64,000 nucleotides of DNA from Brevibacterium atlanticum (lineage in GTDB: Bacteria; Actinomycetota; Actinomycetes; Actinomycetales; Brevibacteriaceae), in assembly GCF_011617245.1 (NCBI RefSeq), contig NZ_CP050152.1:930001-994000 (forward strand), read 5' to 3'. Both the position numbers and the translations under genes were made by a program. Positions 91 to 34,328 of the stretch are shown piece after piece. The first letter of the stretch is position 1, and the number at the start of each line of letters is the position of its first letter. The notes under the pieces were generated by a model. That model was not told the origin of the DNA. It saw nothing but the letters and a program-made list of their open reading frames with translations, and searched no databases.

Positions 91-120
91 CTACCTGACG
101 GGTGCCCAGATACCTCGCGC
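91..120. repeat. Left half of 56-nt intergenic palindrome, split by IS110 copy 1
   Basis: The sequence from CTACCTGACGGG to ACCTCGCGC is the left arm of the palindrome seen intact at 3137-3192 and 10241-10296. Its right arm resumes at 1528. Joining 120 to 1528 restores an almost perfect palindrome whose apex reads CCTCGCGCGAGG. This copy has GGTGCCC in place of the usual CGGCCC in the arm, with the compensating change GGGCACC in the other arm. Confidence 0.93.
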
Positions 121-174
121 TGTGAGTATTGACAGTGGCTGGTCTGGGACTGGCTGGCAGAGTAGGTGTTGGCC

Positions 175-355
175 TCTCCATCCAGTGATCGTGACTCCAC
201 CTCGCGCTGACCCACACAGTGGTGTCTTGACGTCGATTTGTCCGATCACATGGATGGTGCGGCCGGCACCAGCTCGGCCCACATCGGTAACTTGATCAGA
301 AGGCTGTCCACCCCCTAGTAACCAAGGAGGTGTGACTCATCACAGTGTTGTTCCG
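175..355 (+). ncRNA. Predicted bridge RNA of IS110 copy 1
   Basis: Non-coding left-end region with a bridge-RNA layout; the transcript ends are guesses. A stem pairs 178-191 with 243-257 (14 bp, one bulged base). Inside it the left target guide at 199-207 reads ACCTCGCGC, identical to the flanking target at 112-120. The right target guide near 230-235 (ACGTCG) fits the complement of the right target (ACCTCG) at five of six bases. The donor guides are AGAAGG at 298-303, matching the right end of the element, and TCACAG at 340-345, the complement of CTGTGA at the left junction (120-125). Confidence 0.8.
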
Positions 356-434
356 AAGTGACCTTCAACCCGGACCGGTACCGGCCGCAAGCGGCCGCAC
401 AACCTATCGGTCAAACAGGGAGCTTCGAACCGCT

Positions 435-1510
435 ATGTCCATTGTCGCGCACTTATACAGTTTCTTCATCGGCGTCGATACACACGCCAGAAACCACGTC
501 TACACGATCATCGCCAACACCGGTGCCCTCATCGACACCGGCACCTTCCCGACCACGCAGGCGGGCATCAAACGAGCACTGAGCTGGGTCGGTCGACGCA
601 CCTACGGTGACCTCGACACACTCTTCGTCGTCGAAGGTGCCGCCTCCTACGGGGCAGTACTCACCGGGCACATCACCATGGCCGGATACCCCGTCGTCGA
701 AGCCGGGCGCATGGACGCCAAAGCCCGCCACGGAGTGGGCAAGAGCGACGAACTCGATTCCCACCGAATCGCTGAATCCGTACTGCGGTTGGAAGCCGAT
801 CAACTGCGGTGGCCGCGCCAGGGCGAAGGCGTGCGTCAGGCACTTCGCGTGCTGTTGGCAGCCCGGGACGCGATGTCCAAGGAACGTACCCGTGAGATCA
901 ATGCTCTACCGCGCTGGTGCGCACCAACGACCTGGGCATTGATGCCCGCACGTCACTGACAGCTGACCAGGTTGCTGAGATCTCGAGGTGGCGAGACAGG
1001 AAGGAAGACATCGGGTTAGCCACTGCCCGGGAGGAAGCGATTCGCCTGGCTAAACGTGTTCTCGCCCTTGATGAGGAGCTGGCAGGCAACCTCGCGAAAC
1101 TCGCCGAACTCGTCAAGGCCAGCCCGGCGGCTGCCTTGCTGGATGAGCCCGGGTTCGGGCCCTTCAGTGCCGCGGTGTGCTTCACCGCGTGGTCCCATCC
1201 CGGCCGGGTCCGCAACGCAGCAGCATTCGCCGCTCTGGCGGGAGTGAATCCGATTCCTGCCTCGTCGGGCAACACGCATCGTCACCGGTTGAATCGGGGC
1301 GGGGACCGGCAATTAAACCGGGCCCTGCACACGGTGATCATGAACCGGATGATCCATGATGAACGGACCCGAGACTATGTCGCCAAGCACTACGGTGAGG
1401 ACCCGACGAAGAAGTCGAAGAAGGAAATCCGACGCAAACTCAAATGGTATCTAGCGCGTCGGGTCTACAAGATCCTCAACGCGCTAGATACCGTTCCTCA
1501 ACCCGCTTGA
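435..1510 (+). pseudogene. IS110-family transposase, frameshifted
   Basis: The product would be a DEDD (RuvC-like) plus serine (Tnp20) recombinase that moves the element. Frame 1 from ATG 435 (MSIVAHLY) carries GVDTHARNH and the ELDSHRIAE segment, then goes out of frame at about 907. Frame 2 resumes with LRTNDLGID and holds the C-terminal Tnp20 part, including NPIPASSGN, to the stop at 1508-1510. Copy 2 reads INALTALLRANDLG across this point. Here the DNA has CTCTACCGCG where CTCTCACCGCG is needed, so a single C is missing. A frame open upstream to 345 is just read-through of the non-coding end. Confidence 0.92.
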
Positions 1511-1527
1511 CAAGACATAGAAGGATC

Positions 1528-3136: not shown

Positions 3137-3192
3137 CTACCTGACGGCGGCCCAGCAACCTCGCGCGAGGTTGCTGGGCCGCCGTCAGGTAG
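3137..3192. repeat. Intact 56-nt intergenic palindrome
   Basis: CTACCTGACGGCGGCCCAGC, then AACCTCGCGCGAGGTT, then the inverted arm ending GTCAGGTAG. This is a perfect inverted repeat with a GCGC centre. It lies 7 nt past the aconitase stop, where it could act as a strong hairpin terminator, although no T-run follows. It is the reference copy for the repeat family. Confidence 0.96.
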
Positions 3193-7285: not shown

Positions 7286-8907
7286 TGTGTTGCCTCAATA
7301 GGTTGCTGACAACCTGACTCAATACGTTGCTGACAGTATGTCTCAATACGTTGTTGACACACTTCGGGCTATGCCTGAAGCACTTTCAATAGCCCAACGC
7401 CGCGCAATCATCGACTTCGACCCCAACGCACCAGACTCACCATCGATCACCGAGTTCTGCCGTCAACACAGCGTTACTCGAACGTCGTTCTACGCGATCC
7501 GCAAACGCTACAAAACCGAGGGGCTGCAGGCACTCCACGCCCGTTCATCGGCACCGAAGAACACCGTGCGAATCTACGACCAAGAAACCACCGATCTCGT
7601 CTTGAAGATCCGTGCCGAACTCGAGTCCACCGGGTGGGATGCCGGACCGAAATCGATCTGGTACGAAGGCGTCGATACCGGCCGATTCACCGAACCCATC
7701 CCATCGGTGGCCACGATCGGGCGGATCCTTTTCGACGCTGGACGGGTGAAGGCGAACCCGAAGAAGCGTCCCCGATCATCATTGATCCGATTCGTCCGTG
7801 CCAACGCCATGGAACTGTGGCAACTCGACGCTTTCGAATTCGAACTCACCGGCAGCACCACCAAGATCACGGTGTATCAGCTCCTCGACGATTCCACCCG
7901 CCTCGACGTCGGCACACAAGCCTTCCACGGAGTGGAAAACGGCAATCATGCGATCACGACGATCTCTGATGCCTTCGCCAACTATGGGGTGCCCCAAGAG
8001 ATGCTGACCGATAACGGCAACGCCTTCAACGGCAACAGGCAGGGTTGGGTCGTGGCCACTCAGCTCTTCCTCGCCGACCATGGGTGCCGAGGAATCTCCG
8101 GCATGCCCGGACACCCACAAACCCAGGGAAAGAACGAACGTGGCCACCAAACACTGCTCAATGTCCTCAGGGCCCACCGACCCCGCAGCCTCGCTGAAGC
8201 ACGGAAAGTGATCGCGATGTTCCGCGACCGCTACAACTATCGGCGACGGCATCAGTCACTGCCAGGAGACATGAATCCTCACCAAGCCTGGCAAGCAGCA
8301 ATCCACACTCCTTCAGACGGCACACCGATCCCGCATGCTGAAGTCGAAGCGATCGCACGTGAGTACGCTCAACGGCGACGCGTTCTAGCCGCAATGAACC
8401 AACCACACGTCGATGACGAGAAATCGGCCGGTGAACCTCTCCCGACCGCAGCTGACTCAGTACCGGACCGAGTCGTCATCGCTGCGGGCAATCCACAGAT
8501 CTACTTCCAGGCCGTCGGACTCGGAGTACCGAGAACATTGGCCGGAACTTATCAATCAGTCGTCACTGACGACTTCTACGCACTGTTCGACACGACCACT
8601 GGCGAGGAAGTGGTGTACTTCCCGCTCCCCATCCGCACCGCGGAAACGTCGAGACGATACCCGCTGTGGAGAGTCATCGGCGCCAGAATGCGTGGAGCCA
8701 CGAGCATGTGGTTGAAGAAGCAGCGCGACTACATGCTCAAGCACTTCCCCAACGAGGCTCCGTCTGATCGAACCGTCACGAAATGCCACTGACAACCCCA
8801 CTCATTTAGTGTGAGCAACCTATGGAGTCAGGTCGTTCACAACCTGGTGAGCGAGGTTGTCAGCAACGTATTGAGTGAGATTGTCAGCAAGGTCGCGAGT
8901 TTCCACA
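7286..8907 (+). mobile_element. IS481-like insertion sequence
   Basis: A 1622-bp element with TG...CA ends, flanked by a 14-bp direct duplication (7272-7285 and 8908-8921). Its ends are long imperfect inverted repeats built of tandem units of the type CTCAATACGTTGCTGACA: three units at 7291-7362 and inverted copies at about 8850-8900. The units are probably transposase-binding sites. One intact transposase gene fills the centre. TSD length and transposase type fit the IS481 family. Confidence 0.88.
7338..8792 (+). CDS. IS481-like DDE transposase
   Basis: Up to 484 aa with an N-terminal helix-turn-helix (VTEFCRQHS-like FCRQHSVTRTSFYAIRKRY) and an rve integrase core. The presumed DDE residues lie in WQLDAFEF, LTDNGNAFNG and GKNERGHQ, followed by the NYRRRHQSL segment typical of this group. 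ATG 7338 lies inside the third terminal repeat unit, so its first residues encode a binding site. ATG 7371 (MPEALSIAQRR) is an equally plausible start. No interruption is seen, so the element may be active. Confidence 0.88.
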   Translation: MSQYVVDTLRAMPEALSIAQRRAIIDFDPNAPDSPSITEFCRQHSVTRTSFYAIRKRYKTEGLQALHARSSAPKNTVRIYDQETTDLVLKIRAELESTGWDAGPKSIWYEGVDTGRFTEPIPSVATIGRILFDAGRVKANPKKRPRSSLIRFVRANAMELWQLDAFEFELTGSTTKITVYQLLDDSTRLDVGTQAFHGVENGNHAITTISDAFANYGVPQEMLTDNGNAFNGNRQGWVVATQLFLADHGCRGISGMPGHPQTQGKNERGHQTLLNVLRAHRPRSLAEARKVIAMFRDRYNYRRRHQSLPGDMNPHQAWQAAIHTPSDGTPIPHAEVEAIAREYAQRRRVLAAMNQPHVDDEKSAGEPLPTAADSVPDRVVIAAGNPQIYFQAVGLGVPRTLAGTYQSVVTDDFYALFDTTTGEEVVYFPLPIRTAETSRRYPLWRVIGARMRGATSMWLKKQRDYMLKHFPNEAPSDRTVTKCH

Positions 8908-10240: not shown

Positions 10241-10296
10241 CTACCTGACGGCGGCCCAGCAACCTCGCGCGAGGTTGCTGGGCCGCCGTCAGGTAG
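10241..10296. repeat. Intact 56-nt intergenic palindrome
   Basis: A perfect copy with the AACCTCGCGCGAGGTT centre. Its right arm overlaps the 3' end of the LysR gene: the last codons GCT ACC and the stop TGA are read from the palindrome on the minus strand. Confidence 0.95.
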
Positions 10297-27566: not shown

Positions 27567-27642
27567 TGGTGGCTCCGACCGGCGTCGATCCGGTGACCTT
27601 TCGATTTTCAGTCGAACGCTCTACCAACTGAGCTACAGAGCC
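27567..27642 (-). tRNA. tRNA-Phe (GAA), CCA encoded
   Basis: A 76-nt cloverleaf on the minus strand: acceptor GGCTCTG/CGGAGCC, D-arm GCTC-AGTTGGTA-GAGC, anticodon arm with CTGAAAA (GAA), and T-arm with GGTTCGA-type loop (GGATCGACGCC). The discriminator A is followed by an encoded CCA. Confidence 0.95.
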
Positions 27643-27678
27643 TGGTCGCCGACGCACAAACGTGCGCCGAGAGAAACA

Positions 27679-27702
27679 AAGGCTCTTCCGAAGAAGAGCC
27701 TT
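27679..27702 (-). terminator. Intrinsic terminator after tRNA-Asp
   Basis: AAGGCTCTT-CCGAAG-AAGAGCCTT is a 9-bp stem. On the minus strand it lies 8 nt past tRNA-Asp and is followed by TGTTTCTC. It separates tRNA-Asp from tRNA-Phe, so these are not one simple tRNA transcript. Confidence 0.75.
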
Positions 27703-27710
27703 ATGCTCCG

Positions 27711-27784
27711 CGACCCTGACGGGACTCGAACCCGCGACCTCCGCCGTGACAGGGCGGCGCGCTAACCAACTGCGCCACAGGGCC
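27711..27784 (-). tRNA. tRNA-Asp (GTC)
   Basis: A 74-nt cloverleaf: acceptor GGCCCTG/CAGGGTC, D-loop GCGC-AGTTGGTTA-GCGC, anticodon loop CTGTCAC (GTC), and T-loop GGGTTCGAGTCCC. Discriminator G; CCA is not encoded. Confidence 0.95.
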
Positions 27785-27824
27785 TTGCTGTTGTTGCGAT
27801 GTGGAACCTCTCGATCCTACACCG

Positions 27825-27897
<73 letters not shown>

Positions 27898-31252: not shown

Positions 31253-31304
31253 CTACCTGACGGCGGCCCAGCAACCTCGCGCGAGGTAGCTGGGCCGCCG
31301 TCAG
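31253..31304. repeat. Palindrome interrupted near its edge by IS110 copy 2
   Basis: CTACCTGACGGCGGCCCAGC...GGGCCGCCGTCAG is complete except for the last four bases. GTAG resumes at 32690-32693 on the far side of the element. The restored junction reads TCAGGTAGTAATTAG. The centre is asymmetric (AACCTCGCGCGAGGTA). Confidence 0.94.
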
Positions 31305-31320
31305 GATCCTTCTATGCTTG

Positions 31321-32388
31321 TCAAGCGGCCTGCCCAACCACGCTCGTCGCCTCGAGAAGCCGATAAACTCTCCGGGCCACAAACCGCTTGATACACCGGA
31401 TAGCCTCCTTCTTCGACTTCCCTTCCCCAAGTCGTTTAGCCATGTACGCTCGGGTCTCCTCATCGAAGGACAGCTTCGTGATGGCCACCATGTACAACGC
31501 GGAGTTCAACCGGCGGTCCCCGCTGCGGTTGAGTCGGAATCTCACCACATTGCCCGACGATGCTGGGATCGGATTCACCCCCGCCAGCTTCGCGAACGCA
31601 GCCTCGGAATGCACCCGTCCTGGATGAGACCACGCCAGATAGAACACGGCGGCAGTGATCGGTCCGATCCCCGGCTGGGCCAGCAGCACAGCGGCAGGAC
31701 TGTCCTTCACCAGAGCCAGAATCCGTGTGGCGTAATCCTTGATGTCGGCATCGAGTTCGATGACGCGTTTGGCTAACCGGATCGCTTCCCGACGTGCTTC
31801 ACAACGGGCCACAGGCTCGTTCCGGCCCCGCCATTTCGACACCGTGCGGATCTTGGCGACTGACAGTTTCCGTCGGGCATCGATACCGAGATCGTTCGCC
31901 CGCAACAACGCGGTCAGCGCGTTGATGGTGCGGGTCTTCTCCCGCGTCATGGACTCGCGGGCACCCACGAGGATCCGCAGTCCCTGACGCGGCCCATCGG
32001 CCTGTCTGGGCACGCGCAGCCGCGACTGCTCCAAGGGCAGGACGGTGGTCGCGATTCTGCGGGCGTCGATCTGGTCATCCTTACCCGTGCTGTGACGGTC
32101 GCGGGCACTCATGCTCGCGGCCTCGGCGACCGTATACCCAGCCTCAGCGACGTTCTCGGCCAGGATCGCTCCGTAGGTGCCGATGCCTTCGATCACCCAC
32201 AGGGTGTCCAGGTGCCCGCCGGTGCGACGCCCGACCCAGTCCAACGCGCGTGCCAGGCCAGTATTCGTGGTCGGGAATTCGCGGGTATCGAGGTGCTCAC
32301 CGCGGTTGGTGAGTATGGCGTAGACGTGGTTCTTCGCGTGTGTGTCGACGCCGACGACAAACGCGTACAAGTGCGAGATGATAGTCAT
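31321..32388 (-). CDS. IS110-family transposase (DEDD plus serine recombinase)
   Basis: A 355-aa recombinase that inserts and excises the element, in known relatives guided by a bridge RNA. The RuvC-like part shows Asp15 in GVDTHAKNH, Glu67 in WVIEG, and Asp105/Asp108 in DDQIDAR. The Tnp20 part shows QPGIGPITA, then NPIPASSGN with the presumed nucleophilic Ser at 277/278. ATG 32388 is followed by the conserved N-terminus MTIISHLYAF. The frame is intact, so this copy is probably active and could act on copy 1 ends as well. Confidence 0.95.
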   Translation of the reverse strand: MTIISHLYAFVVGVDTHAKNHVYAILTNRGEHLDTREFPTTNTGLARALDWVGRRTGGHLDTLWVIEGIGTYGAILAENVAEAGYTVAEAASMSARDRHSTGKDDQIDARRIATTVLPLEQSRLRVPRQADGPRQGLRILVGARESMTREKTRTINALTALLRANDLGIDARRKLSVAKIRTVSKWRGRNEPVARCEARREAIRLAKRVIELDADIKDYATRILALVKDSPAAVLLAQPGIGPITAAVFYLAWSHPGRVHSEAAFAKLAGVNPIPASSGNVVRFRLNRSGDRRLNSALYMVAITKLSFDEETRAYMAKRLGEGKSKKEAIRCIKRFVARRVYRLLEATSVVGQAA

Positions 32389-32474
32389 GACGGTTCGTGA
32401 TTCTCCCGTGTTAGAGCGGATGATGTCCGACCGTCGAACGGTCGGCTCCGGTCCGGGAGATAGTCACGTCGGAA

Positions 32475-32636
32475 CACTACTGTGATGAGTCACGTTCGGT
32501 CAGGAACGGACAACCTTCTGATCAAGTTACCGATGTGGGCCGAGCCGGGGCCGACCGCCCACCGATCATCAGACAGATCCTGACGATGACATCGTCTGAG
32601 TCAGCAGTAATTCGAGTCATGATGATCGATGGGACG
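32475..32636 (-). ncRNA. Predicted bridge RNA of IS110 copy 2
   Basis: Non-coding left-end region, read on the minus strand; ends are approximate. Arms at 32620-32633 and 32558-32571 pair over 14 positions. They differ in sequence from copy 1 yet enclose the homologous loop. The left target guide at 32604-32612 (AATTACTGC) matches the flank AATTACTAC (plus-strand 32690-32698), with one G/A difference that a G-U wobble tolerates. The right target guide at 32579-32585 (CGTCAGG) is the exact complement of CCTGACG across the other junction. Donor guides are at 32514-32519 (AGAAGG) and 32480-32485 (TCACAG). Confidence 0.82.
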
Positions 32637-32689
32637 GTCAGTTCCTACTCTGCCAGCCAGTCCCAGACCAGCCACTATCAATCCTCACA

Positions 32690-32693
32690 GTAG
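32690..32693. repeat. Last four bases of the palindrome beyond IS110 copy 2
   Basis: GTAG completes the repeat begun at 31253. It is followed within 4 nt by the TAA stop of the amidohydrolase gene (minus strand), so the insertion just missed that gene. Confidence 0.85.
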
Positions 32694-32696
32694 TAA

Positions 32697-34328
32697 TTAG
32701 GGGAGGTGGTGGGTGTAGGTGCCGCCTAGGACGGTGGCCCGGATCGGGATCGTTGAGATCTCTTCGGGGGCGACGTTGCCTGGGTGCGTCTCCAGGGCGA
32801 CGAAGTCCGCGAGCTTGCCGCGGCTGAGCGTGCCCTTGTCCGCACCCTGCCCCGAACCGACCGCGGCATCGACCGTGTAGGCCGCGATCGCCTCGTCGAC
32901 GCTCAGGCACTCCGCGGCCGATCCCATGACATCGCCCTCACGGGTGGCGCGGGTGACGAAGGCTTCGATGCCGCGCAGCACGTTCCCATCCGCGCACGGC
33001 CGGTCCGAACTGCCGGCCAGCAGCACACCGGCATCGACGAATGACTTCGCGCGATAGAGCAGCCTGCGCCGCTGCGGCCCGAGCGACCTGTTCATTCCGT
33101 CGCCGATGCCGTCGGCGAACGCGGACTGCGGGGTGACGACGATGCCGTGCTCGGCCAGTGTGGCCAGATGCTCATCGTGGACCATCGCGGCATGTTCGAT
33201 CCGGTTGGGCACGGCCCGCCGACCGTACCGGTTCTGCGCGTCGACGATGTTCTCAATCGCCGCATCCACGGCGGCATCGCCGATCGCATGCACCGCCACC
33301 GACCAGCCGGACGCATAGGTGTCAAGGATCTGCTGGCGGAGCACCTCGGCATCGTCCTGCAGGTACCCGGGATGATCCTTGCCCGCATAGTTCTCCCGCA
33401 GCGCCGCGGTCTCCCCGGACAGGGCCCCGTCCATGAAGAACTTCACCGGACCGATCGAGAGCAGATCATCGCCGAGGCCGGTGCGCAGTCCCGCATCGAG
33501 ACCGATGCCGAATCCGTCGGCCGAGTTCGCCGCGATCGGATGGAGACCGTCGGCCTGCGGCATGAGCTGGGCCCGCGCCCGCAGCTTGCCTTCCTCCCGG
33601 GCCCGCAGGTACGCGGAGATCTCGATGGGGGAGTGCCCGATCCACCCGTAGGCGATCCCGCACTCGCCGAACGAGGTGAGGCCCTCCTTCGCGTAGTACG
33701 CGGTGGCCAGATCGATCGCCTCGACGAGCGTGTCGAGCGAATACGGCCGGATGAGATCCTGGACGAGCGCCTGAGCGGTCTCCTCGAGCAGACCCGTCGG
33801 ATGCCCCGCCGCATCACGGACGACCTTGCCGCCGACAGGCTCTTCGAACCCGTCCGCGAGGATGCCCGCCCGGCGCATCGCCTCGGTGTTGACGATCGCG
33901 GCATGACCCGAGGTCTGCCGCATGAACAGCGGCCGGTCCCCGGTGATCTCGTCGAGGCGGGCCAGGTCCGGGTACTGACCGTCATAGTCGCGGTGGGCAT
34001 ACCCGGTGGCGTTGATCCATTCCCCGCCCGGCGTCGTCGCCGCGGCCTGTTCGAGGGCGGCATAGACATCGGGCAGCCCGCCCGGCAGCGCCGTGACGTC
34101 GACCGATGCGAGGGTGAGCCCGAACCAGGCGGTGTGGCAGTGGGCGTCGTGGAAGCCCGGCAGCACCGTCGCCCCGCCGAGCGATTCGACCCGGTCGGCG
34201 CTGATGCCGTCGAGTTCCTCGTCGAAGCCGACGATCCGGGAGCCCAGCACCCCGATCTTCCTCGCCCGCGGCCTGGCCGGATCGAGGGTGTGTGCGTCGA
34301 GGTCGGTGAAGATCGCGTCGATTCTCAT
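32697..34328 (-). CDS. YtcJ-like metal-dependent amidohydrolase (amidohydrolase-3)
   Basis: A 543-aa protein. Metal-site motifs are GFHDAHCH near residue 57, a lysine/histidine region near SIGPVKFFMDGAL, AVHAIGDAAVD near 340, RIEHAAMV near 370 and GSSDRPCADGN near 435. The family contains N-substituted formamide deformylases and other exoenzyme-type deacylases; the substrate is unknown. It starts at ATG 34328. The neighbouring ThDP enzyme upstream is on the same strand 48 nt away, a possible pair. Confidence 0.85.
   Translation of the reverse strand: MRIDAIFTDLDAHTLDPARPRARKIGVLGSRIVGFDEELDGISADRVESLGGATVLPGFHDAHCHTAWFGLTLASVDVTALPGGLPDVYAALEQAAATTPGGEWINATGYAHRDYDGQYPDLARLDEITGDRPLFMRQTSGHAAIVNTEAMRRAGILADGFEEPVGGKVVRDAAGHPTGLLEETAQALVQDLIRPYSLDTLVEAIDLATAYYAKEGLTSFGECGIAYGWIGHSPIEISAYLRAREEGKLRARAQLMPQADGLHPIAANSADGFGIGLDAGLRTGLGDDLLSIGPVKFFMDGALSGETAALRENYAGKDHPGYLQDDAEVLRQQILDTYASGWSVAVHAIGDAAVDAAIENIVDAQNRYGRRAVPNRIEHAAMVHDEHLATLAEHGIVVTPQSAFADGIGDGMNRSLGPQRRRLLYRAKSFVDAGVLLAGSSDRPCADGNVLRGIEAFVTRATREGDVMGSAAECLSVDEAIAAYTVDAAVGSGQGADKGTLSRGKLADFVALETHPGNVAPEEISTIPIRATVLGGTYTHHLP

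What the first reader, a model, noticed from the sequence alone, without database searches (positions are those of the whole stretch)
32579..32698. IS110 copy 2: homologous guides differ and match its different target
At the position homologous to copy 1, copy 2 reads AATTACTGC (32604-32612, minus). Its flank is AATTACTAC (32690-32698, minus); the one mismatch is G-U compatible. The right guide CGTCAGG (32579-32585) is the exact complement of CCTGACG at the other junction. So two related elements have different guide loops, each fitting its own site: a natural case of target reprogramming within one genome.
Basis: partly seen in the sequence, partly recalled or inferred. Interest (0 to 1): 0.93.

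Follow-up and report, generated by a model that had tools for sequence, protein, structure and literature searches.

The report
RNA-guided jumping elements retargeted in nature
Two related jumping DNA elements on one Brevibacterium chromosome each carry a predicted guide RNA whose short guide stretches match the different spot, in the same repeated palindrome, where that element sits, and across relatives the guides change together with the sites, so this RNA likely steers where each element inserts.

Summary
Copy 2 (31306-32690, minus) is an IS110-group element whose left end encodes a predicted bridge RNA: left guide AATTACTGC (flank AATTACTAC, one wobble mismatch), right guide CGTCAGG (exact complement of CCTGACG). 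Seven copies with this guide sit at AATTACTA|C in the genome. Copy 1's type (two copies) reads ACCTCGCGC in guide and flank. Both targets are addresses in one genome-wide palindrome, edge and apex; relatives add a mid-stem one.

Over 25 distinct guides, 186 of 200 guide bases match the flank (shuffled mean 86, maximum 119). The consensus RNA of 24 left ends has two guide-bearing internal loops; 31 of 56 pairs show compensatory change. Of 29 edge insertions in eight genomes, 26 took the site variant written in the guide (7.3 expected). Sharper within-genome cases: 97%-identical recombinases with different guides in Brevibacterium sp. S111; left ends differing by one guide base, agreeing with the flank in 6 of 7 copies, in draft genome G041.

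Bridge RNAs and natural retargeting are published, so this is a clean new member of a known kind. No bench test; 6 of 99 loci match the flank at fewer than 7 of 8 left-guide bases.

The parts
31306..32690 (-). Copy 2, whole IS110-group element (one shared C at 32690/31305 leaves the exact ends ambiguous by 1 base)
   Evidence: Ends set by seven copies at seven sites in the same genome
31321..32388 (-). Copy 2 recombinase, 355 aa (P0001)
   Evidence: Pfam DEDD_Tnp_IS110 and Transposase_20; matches the sequences of the IS621 and ISCro4 structures, E about 5e-14
32450..32669 (-). Predicted bridge RNA of copy 2 (structured part, ends approximate)
   Evidence: Consensus fold of 24 left ends, 31 of 56 pairs with compensatory change; single fold z -3.5
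32604..32612 (-). Left target guide AATTACTGC
   Evidence: Matches flank 32690-32698, wobble at one base; unpaired in the consensus target loop
32579..32585 (-). Right target guide CGTCAGG
   Evidence: Exact complement of CCTGACG at 31299-31305; unpaired in the consensus, partly paired in the single-sequence fold
32690..32698 (-). Left target half AATTACTAC
   Evidence: Same in all 7 copies in the genome; also at 5 edges without this element, one of them copy 1's own palindrome
31255..31305 (.). Palindromic repeat whose edge is the target of copy 2; right target half CCTGACG at 31305-31299
   Evidence: genome-wide repeat
32514..32519 (-). Predicted left donor guide AGAAGG (same letters as the element's right end)
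   Evidence: Sequence; unpaired in the consensus donor loop
32480..32486 (-). Predicted right donor guide ATCACAG (6 of 7 complementary to the element's left end CTGTGAG)
   Evidence: Sequence
120..1526 (+). Copy 1, second IS110-group element, at the palindrome apex
199..207 (+). Copy 1 left guide ACCTCGCGC
   Evidence: Identical to its flank 112-120
230..235 (+). Copy 1 right guide ACGTCG (one mismatch to the complement of CGAGGT at 1527-1532)
   Evidence: relatives L035 and L047 read ACCTCG
345..1510 (+). Copy 1 recombinase, broken into two overlapping frames (204 and 197 aa)

Best explanation
Copies 1 and 2 are IS110-group insertion sequences whose left ends encode a predicted bridge RNA, and the two guide stretches of its target loop likely pair with the two strands of the insertion site and so choose it. 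The seven copies of copy 2's type use one guide pair (AATTACTGC / CGTCAGG) and sit at the edge of a host palindrome; copy 1's type uses another (ACCTCGCGC / ACGTCG) and sits at the palindrome's apex. The RNA would bring the circular element and the palindrome together for the DEDD recombinase. Shown: elements, ends, sites, guide-flank match, covarying RNA fold, guide change tracking site change. Inferred: RNA expression, RNP formation, a circular intermediate, recombination in vivo. Evolution is best read as change in the fast-changing guide (single substitutions, and in one pair a block of changes) followed by spread to sites that fit, with wobble-tolerant guides (for example AATTGCTAC, found in one genome at AATTGCTA, AATTACTA and AATCGCTA) possibly bridging neighbouring site variants.
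For: Pfam and IS621/ISCro4 homology. Seven copies of copy 2's type and two of copy 1's in the genome, 9 of 9 in the palindrome. Left guides: 186 of 200 bases over 25 distinct guides, shuffles mean 86, max 119, 0 of 20,000 as high; right guides 56 of 70 over 14, mean 23, max 43, 0 of 20,000. RNA fold: 95% of cells paired, 31 of 56 pairs with two-sided change, 0 of 500 shuffles as high, slid controls 33-45% paired. Target guides lie in unpaired parts of the consensus. Edge variant used: 26 of 29 against 7.3 expected by availability, 0 of 20,000 draws as high. One-base tracking: apex 18/0 against 1/5, P 1.4e-4; mid-stem 4/0 against 0/9, P 0.0014. Brevibacterium sp. S111: recombinases 97% identical, guides CAGAACTAC and AATTGCTAC each equal to own flank, 5 of 9 left-end differences fall in the 10-nt guide, P 3e-6. 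G041: six copies differ from a seventh, over the 95-211 nt compared, only at one guide base, and guide and flank agree there in 6 of 7.
Against: 6 of 99 loci match fewer than 7 of 8 left-flank bases, two of them (L044, L052 in G053) only 5 of 8. Six further combinations carry a non-wobble mismatch. Copy 1's right guide has a mismatch. Right guides of L014-L018, L021, L019 and L070/L071 match only 2-3 of 5 beyond the shared C. The single-sequence fold of copy 2 pairs part of the right guide. No expression or activity data. Many relatives lie at contig ends of draft assemblies. Copies are not all independent: some insertions are shared between species (L033 and L034 have the same flank).
Confidence: 0.93

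Rival explanations
1. The recombinase itself recognises the palindrome (shape or sequence) and the guide resemblance is incidental or inherited.
For: All nine copies in the genome sit in one palindrome family; hairpin targets invite structure recognition.
Against: 97% identical recombinases sit at different edge variants matching their guides; left ends differing by one guide base mostly track the flank base; relatives at flanks other than the palindrome also match them.
Confidence: 0.03
2. The guide is copied from the flank after insertion (short-range conversion), so the match records where the element sits and does not choose it.
For: Guide and flank lie about 80 bp apart and share the following CTG; in S111 the left-end differences cluster in the guide.
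Against: One guide serves many sites: 7 sites in this genome, all AATTACTA although 27 of 40 element-free edges of the three counted variants are AATTGCTA; G041's T guide is also found at a C site; G043's guide sits at three site variants.
Confidence: 0.05
3. The matching flank is part of the element (a terminal repeat).
For: The same AATTACTA borders all 7 copies.
Against: The same edge sequences occur at palindromes without this element, copy 1's own among them; the right side continues into the palindrome.
Confidence: 0.01
4. Chance resemblance of short stretches.
For: For 11 of 14 right guides a 6-mer elsewhere in the left end matches as well or better.
Against: 0 of 20,000 shuffles reach the observed left or right guide match.
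Confidence: 0.01

Closest known systems
IS621 and the IS110 bridge-RNA system (Durrant 2024, PMC11208160: outline, sections 6, 12, 13 and passages seen; Hiraizumi 2024, PMC11208158: search listings only)
   Same: DEDD plus Transposase_20 recombinase, long left end with an RNA of two internal loops, left guide like the top strand, right guide complementary to it, REP-type palindromic targets, and the same G-for-A wobble (IS621 loop ATCGGGCCTAC, natural target ATCAGGCCTAC; passage).
   Different: Only about 55 bits to IS621. Only one shared C is resolved at the junction here (IS621 core CT). Three guide programmes address three positions of one host palindrome.
ISEc11/ISXne4 and ISEc21/ISMch6 natural re-direction (Siddiquee 2024, PMC11187229: passages seen)
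   Same: Natural change of guide with change of target between relatives.
   Different: Those pairs have 72% identical transposases, and no shared genome was stated in the passages seen. Here 97% identity, or a single base, within one genome, with counts of untaken sites.
ISPpu9 and ISPpu10 in P. putida REPs (Tobes and Pareja 2006, PMC1525189: passages seen)
   Same: Two IS110 elements in one genome, all copies in one repeat family.
   Different: Those two insert at the same point of the repeat. Here copies 1 and 2 use different points.

Membership tests
IS110 group | DEDD_Tnp_IS110 and Transposase_20 domains | tested here: met
   79.1 and 68.9 bits, above the curated cut-offs
IS110 group | DEDD acidic residues and C-terminal serine | tested here: met
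   D15, E67, D105, D108 and the second Ser of PASSGN align to D, E, D, D and S of IS621 (positions); that these IS621 residues are the catalytic ones is recalled
IS110 group | Long left end holding the RNA, short right end | tested here: met
   About 300 nt left, about 15 nt right
IS110 bridge RNA | Conserved RNA with two guide-bearing internal loops | tested here: met
   (24 left ends)
IS110 bridge RNA | Target guides pair with both strands of the insertion site and covary with it | tested here: met
IS110 bridge RNA | Donor guides pair with the element's own ends | tested here: inconclusive
   AGAAGG 6 of 6 and ATCACAG 6 of 7 by eye; highly conserved, so no covariation test was made
IS110 bridge RNA | Two-base core shared by donor and target | tested here: inconclusive
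   Only one C is common to donor and target junctions
IS110 bridge RNA | RNA expressed and bound by the recombinase; circular intermediate | not testable with these tools
   No expression data
Rfam families | Match to a curated RNA family | tested here: not met
   Only three tRNAs in the window reach a gathering score
REP/RAYT system (for the palindrome) | A Y1 (RAYT-type) transposase in the genome | tested here: not met
   No PF01797 match in this genome; the control rings in 5 of 14 genomes

The most novel reading that the evidence does not exclude
Brevibacterium holds a natural retargeting series of an RNA-guided recombinase. Two well-separated IS110 lineages home on one host palindrome and between them occupy three addresses (edge, mid-stem, apex), with the mid-stem address nested in the apex lineage. 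In the edge lineage the guide overlaps the most variable stretch of the RNA, and guides follow the local dialect of the palindrome by substitutions with wobble-tolerant intermediates, so the evolution of guide specificity can be read from copies within a single genome.
Probability: 0.6. Interest if true: 0.75.

Novelty: new member of a known kind. Interest (0 to 1): 0.6.

Why it matters
How bridge RNAs change target in nature is little explored in what I could read. Here near-identical elements in single genomes differ most strongly in the guide, with taken and untaken sites both countable, so specificity and wobble tolerance can be measured without engineering. It also gives several new actinobacterial recombinase/bridge-RNA pairs with natural targets known from their sequence.

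Tried and rejected
Chance match: rejected by shuffles. Protein-only recognition, terminal repeat and flank-to-guide copying: see rivals. RAYT-driven REP: no PF01797 protein in this genome. Rfam: no bridge-RNA family hit in the window. Wobble excess among guide mismatches: 7 of 17 against 1 in 6 expected, P 0.015, suggestive only (skipped there: L044/L052 with 5 of 8, and degenerate L095; four of the ten non-wobble mismatches come from L022 and L070/L071, which fit better with a gap). The first diversity count included the degenerate L095 and was misaligned; it was repeated without it. Its top 10-nt windows start 2-4 nt before the guide and overlap it; the guide itself ranks just below. No covariance model and no structure prediction were made. 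The plasmid search found only relatives at 60-80% identity (11 records).

Rows dropped before counts. One search merged loci sharing 120 nt of left flank; one of its 100 loci (L072) has no readable guide. One search used one row per guide/flank combination (32), the first-listed row per guide (25) and per right guide (14). One search left out three occupied edges with other variants (two CAGGA, one TAGAA, G013), one AATCG (G043) and the degenerate L095 (G053), and counted L034, which one search had merged with L033. Element-free edges were counted for three exact variants only, and include the far edges of occupied palindromes.

Full report
What is there. The window lies at 930001-994000 of a 4.157-Mb one-contig genome. 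Its genus is Brevibacterium: two same-genus genomes hold the same contigs as named records of B. iodinum ATCC 49514 and Brevibacterium sp. S111. Copy 2 (31306-32690, minus) encodes a 355-aa recombinase with both IS110 domains and sequence similarity to the IS621 and ISCro4 structures. Copy 1 (120-1526) is a 56% identical relative whose ORF is broken into two frames. The genome holds seven copies of copy 2's type (six with identical recombinase, one with a single difference) and one more of copy 1's type, intact at 358 aa. A remote fragment (31% identity) was not followed.

Both targets are one repeat. All seven copies of copy 2's type read C[CT]AATTACTA | element | C[CT]GACGGCGGCCCAGC, that is, the edge of a palindrome of about 50 bp. 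Both copies of copy 1's type sit at its apex, ACCTCGCG | element | CGAGGT. The palindrome is genome-wide: 71 + 71 half-site hits with up to 2 mismatches and 0 of the backwards control (an intact palindrome gives two hits).

The RNA. In 24 aligned left ends RNAalifold finds 56 pairs, 31 with compensatory change. On the named structure (8 helices) 95% of cells pair, each of the five measures exceeds all 500 shuffles, and sliding the partner by 1-3 columns drops pairing to 33-45%. The left target guide lies unpaired on the 5' side of one internal loop and the right target guide on its 3' side; a second internal loop holds the donor-like stretches AGAAGG and ATCACAG. In the single-sequence fold of copy 2 part of the right guide is paired. 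This is the anatomy described for the IS110 bridge RNA (PMC11208160, section 6).

Guides track sites. Survey size: 14 of 57 genomes of the genus, this one included, carry a similar left end, and 18 of 396 genomes of the order, this one included, carry the left-end motif. With one row per distinct guide, 186 of 200 bases match; shuffled pairs give a mean of 86 and at most 119. The guide site beats every other left-end position tried in 28 of 32 combinations. Right guides: 56 of 70 against a mean of 23 and at most 43; alone they are weaker, since for 11 of 14 an equal or better 6-mer match exists elsewhere. Examples: CGTCACG at CGTGACG (L044, L052), GGGCCG at CGGCCC (L036), CTAGGG at CCCTAG (L038).

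Choice among available sites. Three edge variants of the palindrome are present in 12 of 12 Brevibacterium genomes examined. This genome has 5 AATTACTA, 8 CAGAACTA and 27 AATTGCTA edges free of this element, yet all seven copies of copy 2's type are at AATTACTA (P 1.3e-5). Over eight genomes 26 of 29 insertions took the guide's variant, against 7.3 expected, 0 of 20,000 draws as high. Exceptions: one wobble-compatible site in G043 and two true misfits in G053. Copies are not fully independent, since some insertions are shared between species.

Natural retargeting at close range. S111 carries two edge elements with 97% identical recombinases and guides CAGAACTAC and AATTGCTAC, each equal to its own flank; 5 of their 9 left-end differences lie in the 10-nt guide. 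In G041 six copies differ from a seventh by a single base over the 95-211 nt compared; that base is in the guide, and guide and flank agree there in 6 of 7, the exception being wobble-compatible. Mid-stem guides differ at one base that agrees with the flank in 13 of 13, though at another base all 13 carry G against A, a wobble. Among eight distinct edge-type left ends the guide is about six times as diverse as the rest (0.268 against 0.044). G013 (B. iodinum) carries edge, mid-stem and apex types. In S111 an edge and an apex element share one palindrome (L013). On the recombinase tree (31 distinct proteins, quick method) edge elements form one clade (99) and the one mid-stem row nests with apex rows (97); the deeper forks between the edge and apex lineages are weak, so separate origins are not shown.

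Known or new. The principle is known: bridge RNAs covary with targets across IS110s (PMC11208160, sections 6, 12, 13), REP-type targets are classic (PMC1525189, passages; IS621), and natural re-direction between 72% identical transposases was reported (PMC11187229, passages). I found no report of IS110 elements using several addresses of one repeat, or of this Brevibacterium palindrome, in the search listings and in passages of two Brevibacterium genome papers. Preprints and most subscription journals are not in that library.

Limits. No expression or activity data. Donor guides and the core are not resolved. Many G013, G035, G025 and G041 copies end at contig ends. The order survey sampled 396 genomes of a larger group.

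Noticed in passing
3139-3190, 10243-10294, 31255-31306: Three copies of the palindrome in the window, each close to the end of an ORF of the mechanical list; likely a terminator-like or REP-like repeat without a RAYT gene in the genome.
   Followed up: partly
L013 (Brevibacterium sp. S111): An edge-type and an apex-type element inserted in the same palindrome copy, right ends towards each other.
   Followed up: partly
L044 and L052 (genome G053): Left guide does not match the flank (5 of 8) although the right guide does; perhaps inserted with another copy's RNA or before the guide changed.
   Followed up: no
917-959: Copy 1's recombinase frame is broken here (204 + 197 aa, overlapping frames); its sister copy L008 in the same genome is intact.
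   Followed up: partly
31319-31324 (minus) and right ends of relatives: TTGACA overlapping the stop codon at the right end; in a circle it would lie upstream of the left end and could be part of a junction promoter. Spacing not tested.
   Followed up: no
27570-27897 (minus): Three tRNA genes in a cluster.
   Followed up: no
7294-7360 and 8809-8875: A 67-nt inverted repeat pair (73%) around an ORF of 484 aa.
   Followed up: no
L011 (genome position 2640301-2640678): A remote IS110-like match (31% identity) with an internal TAG.
   Followed up: no
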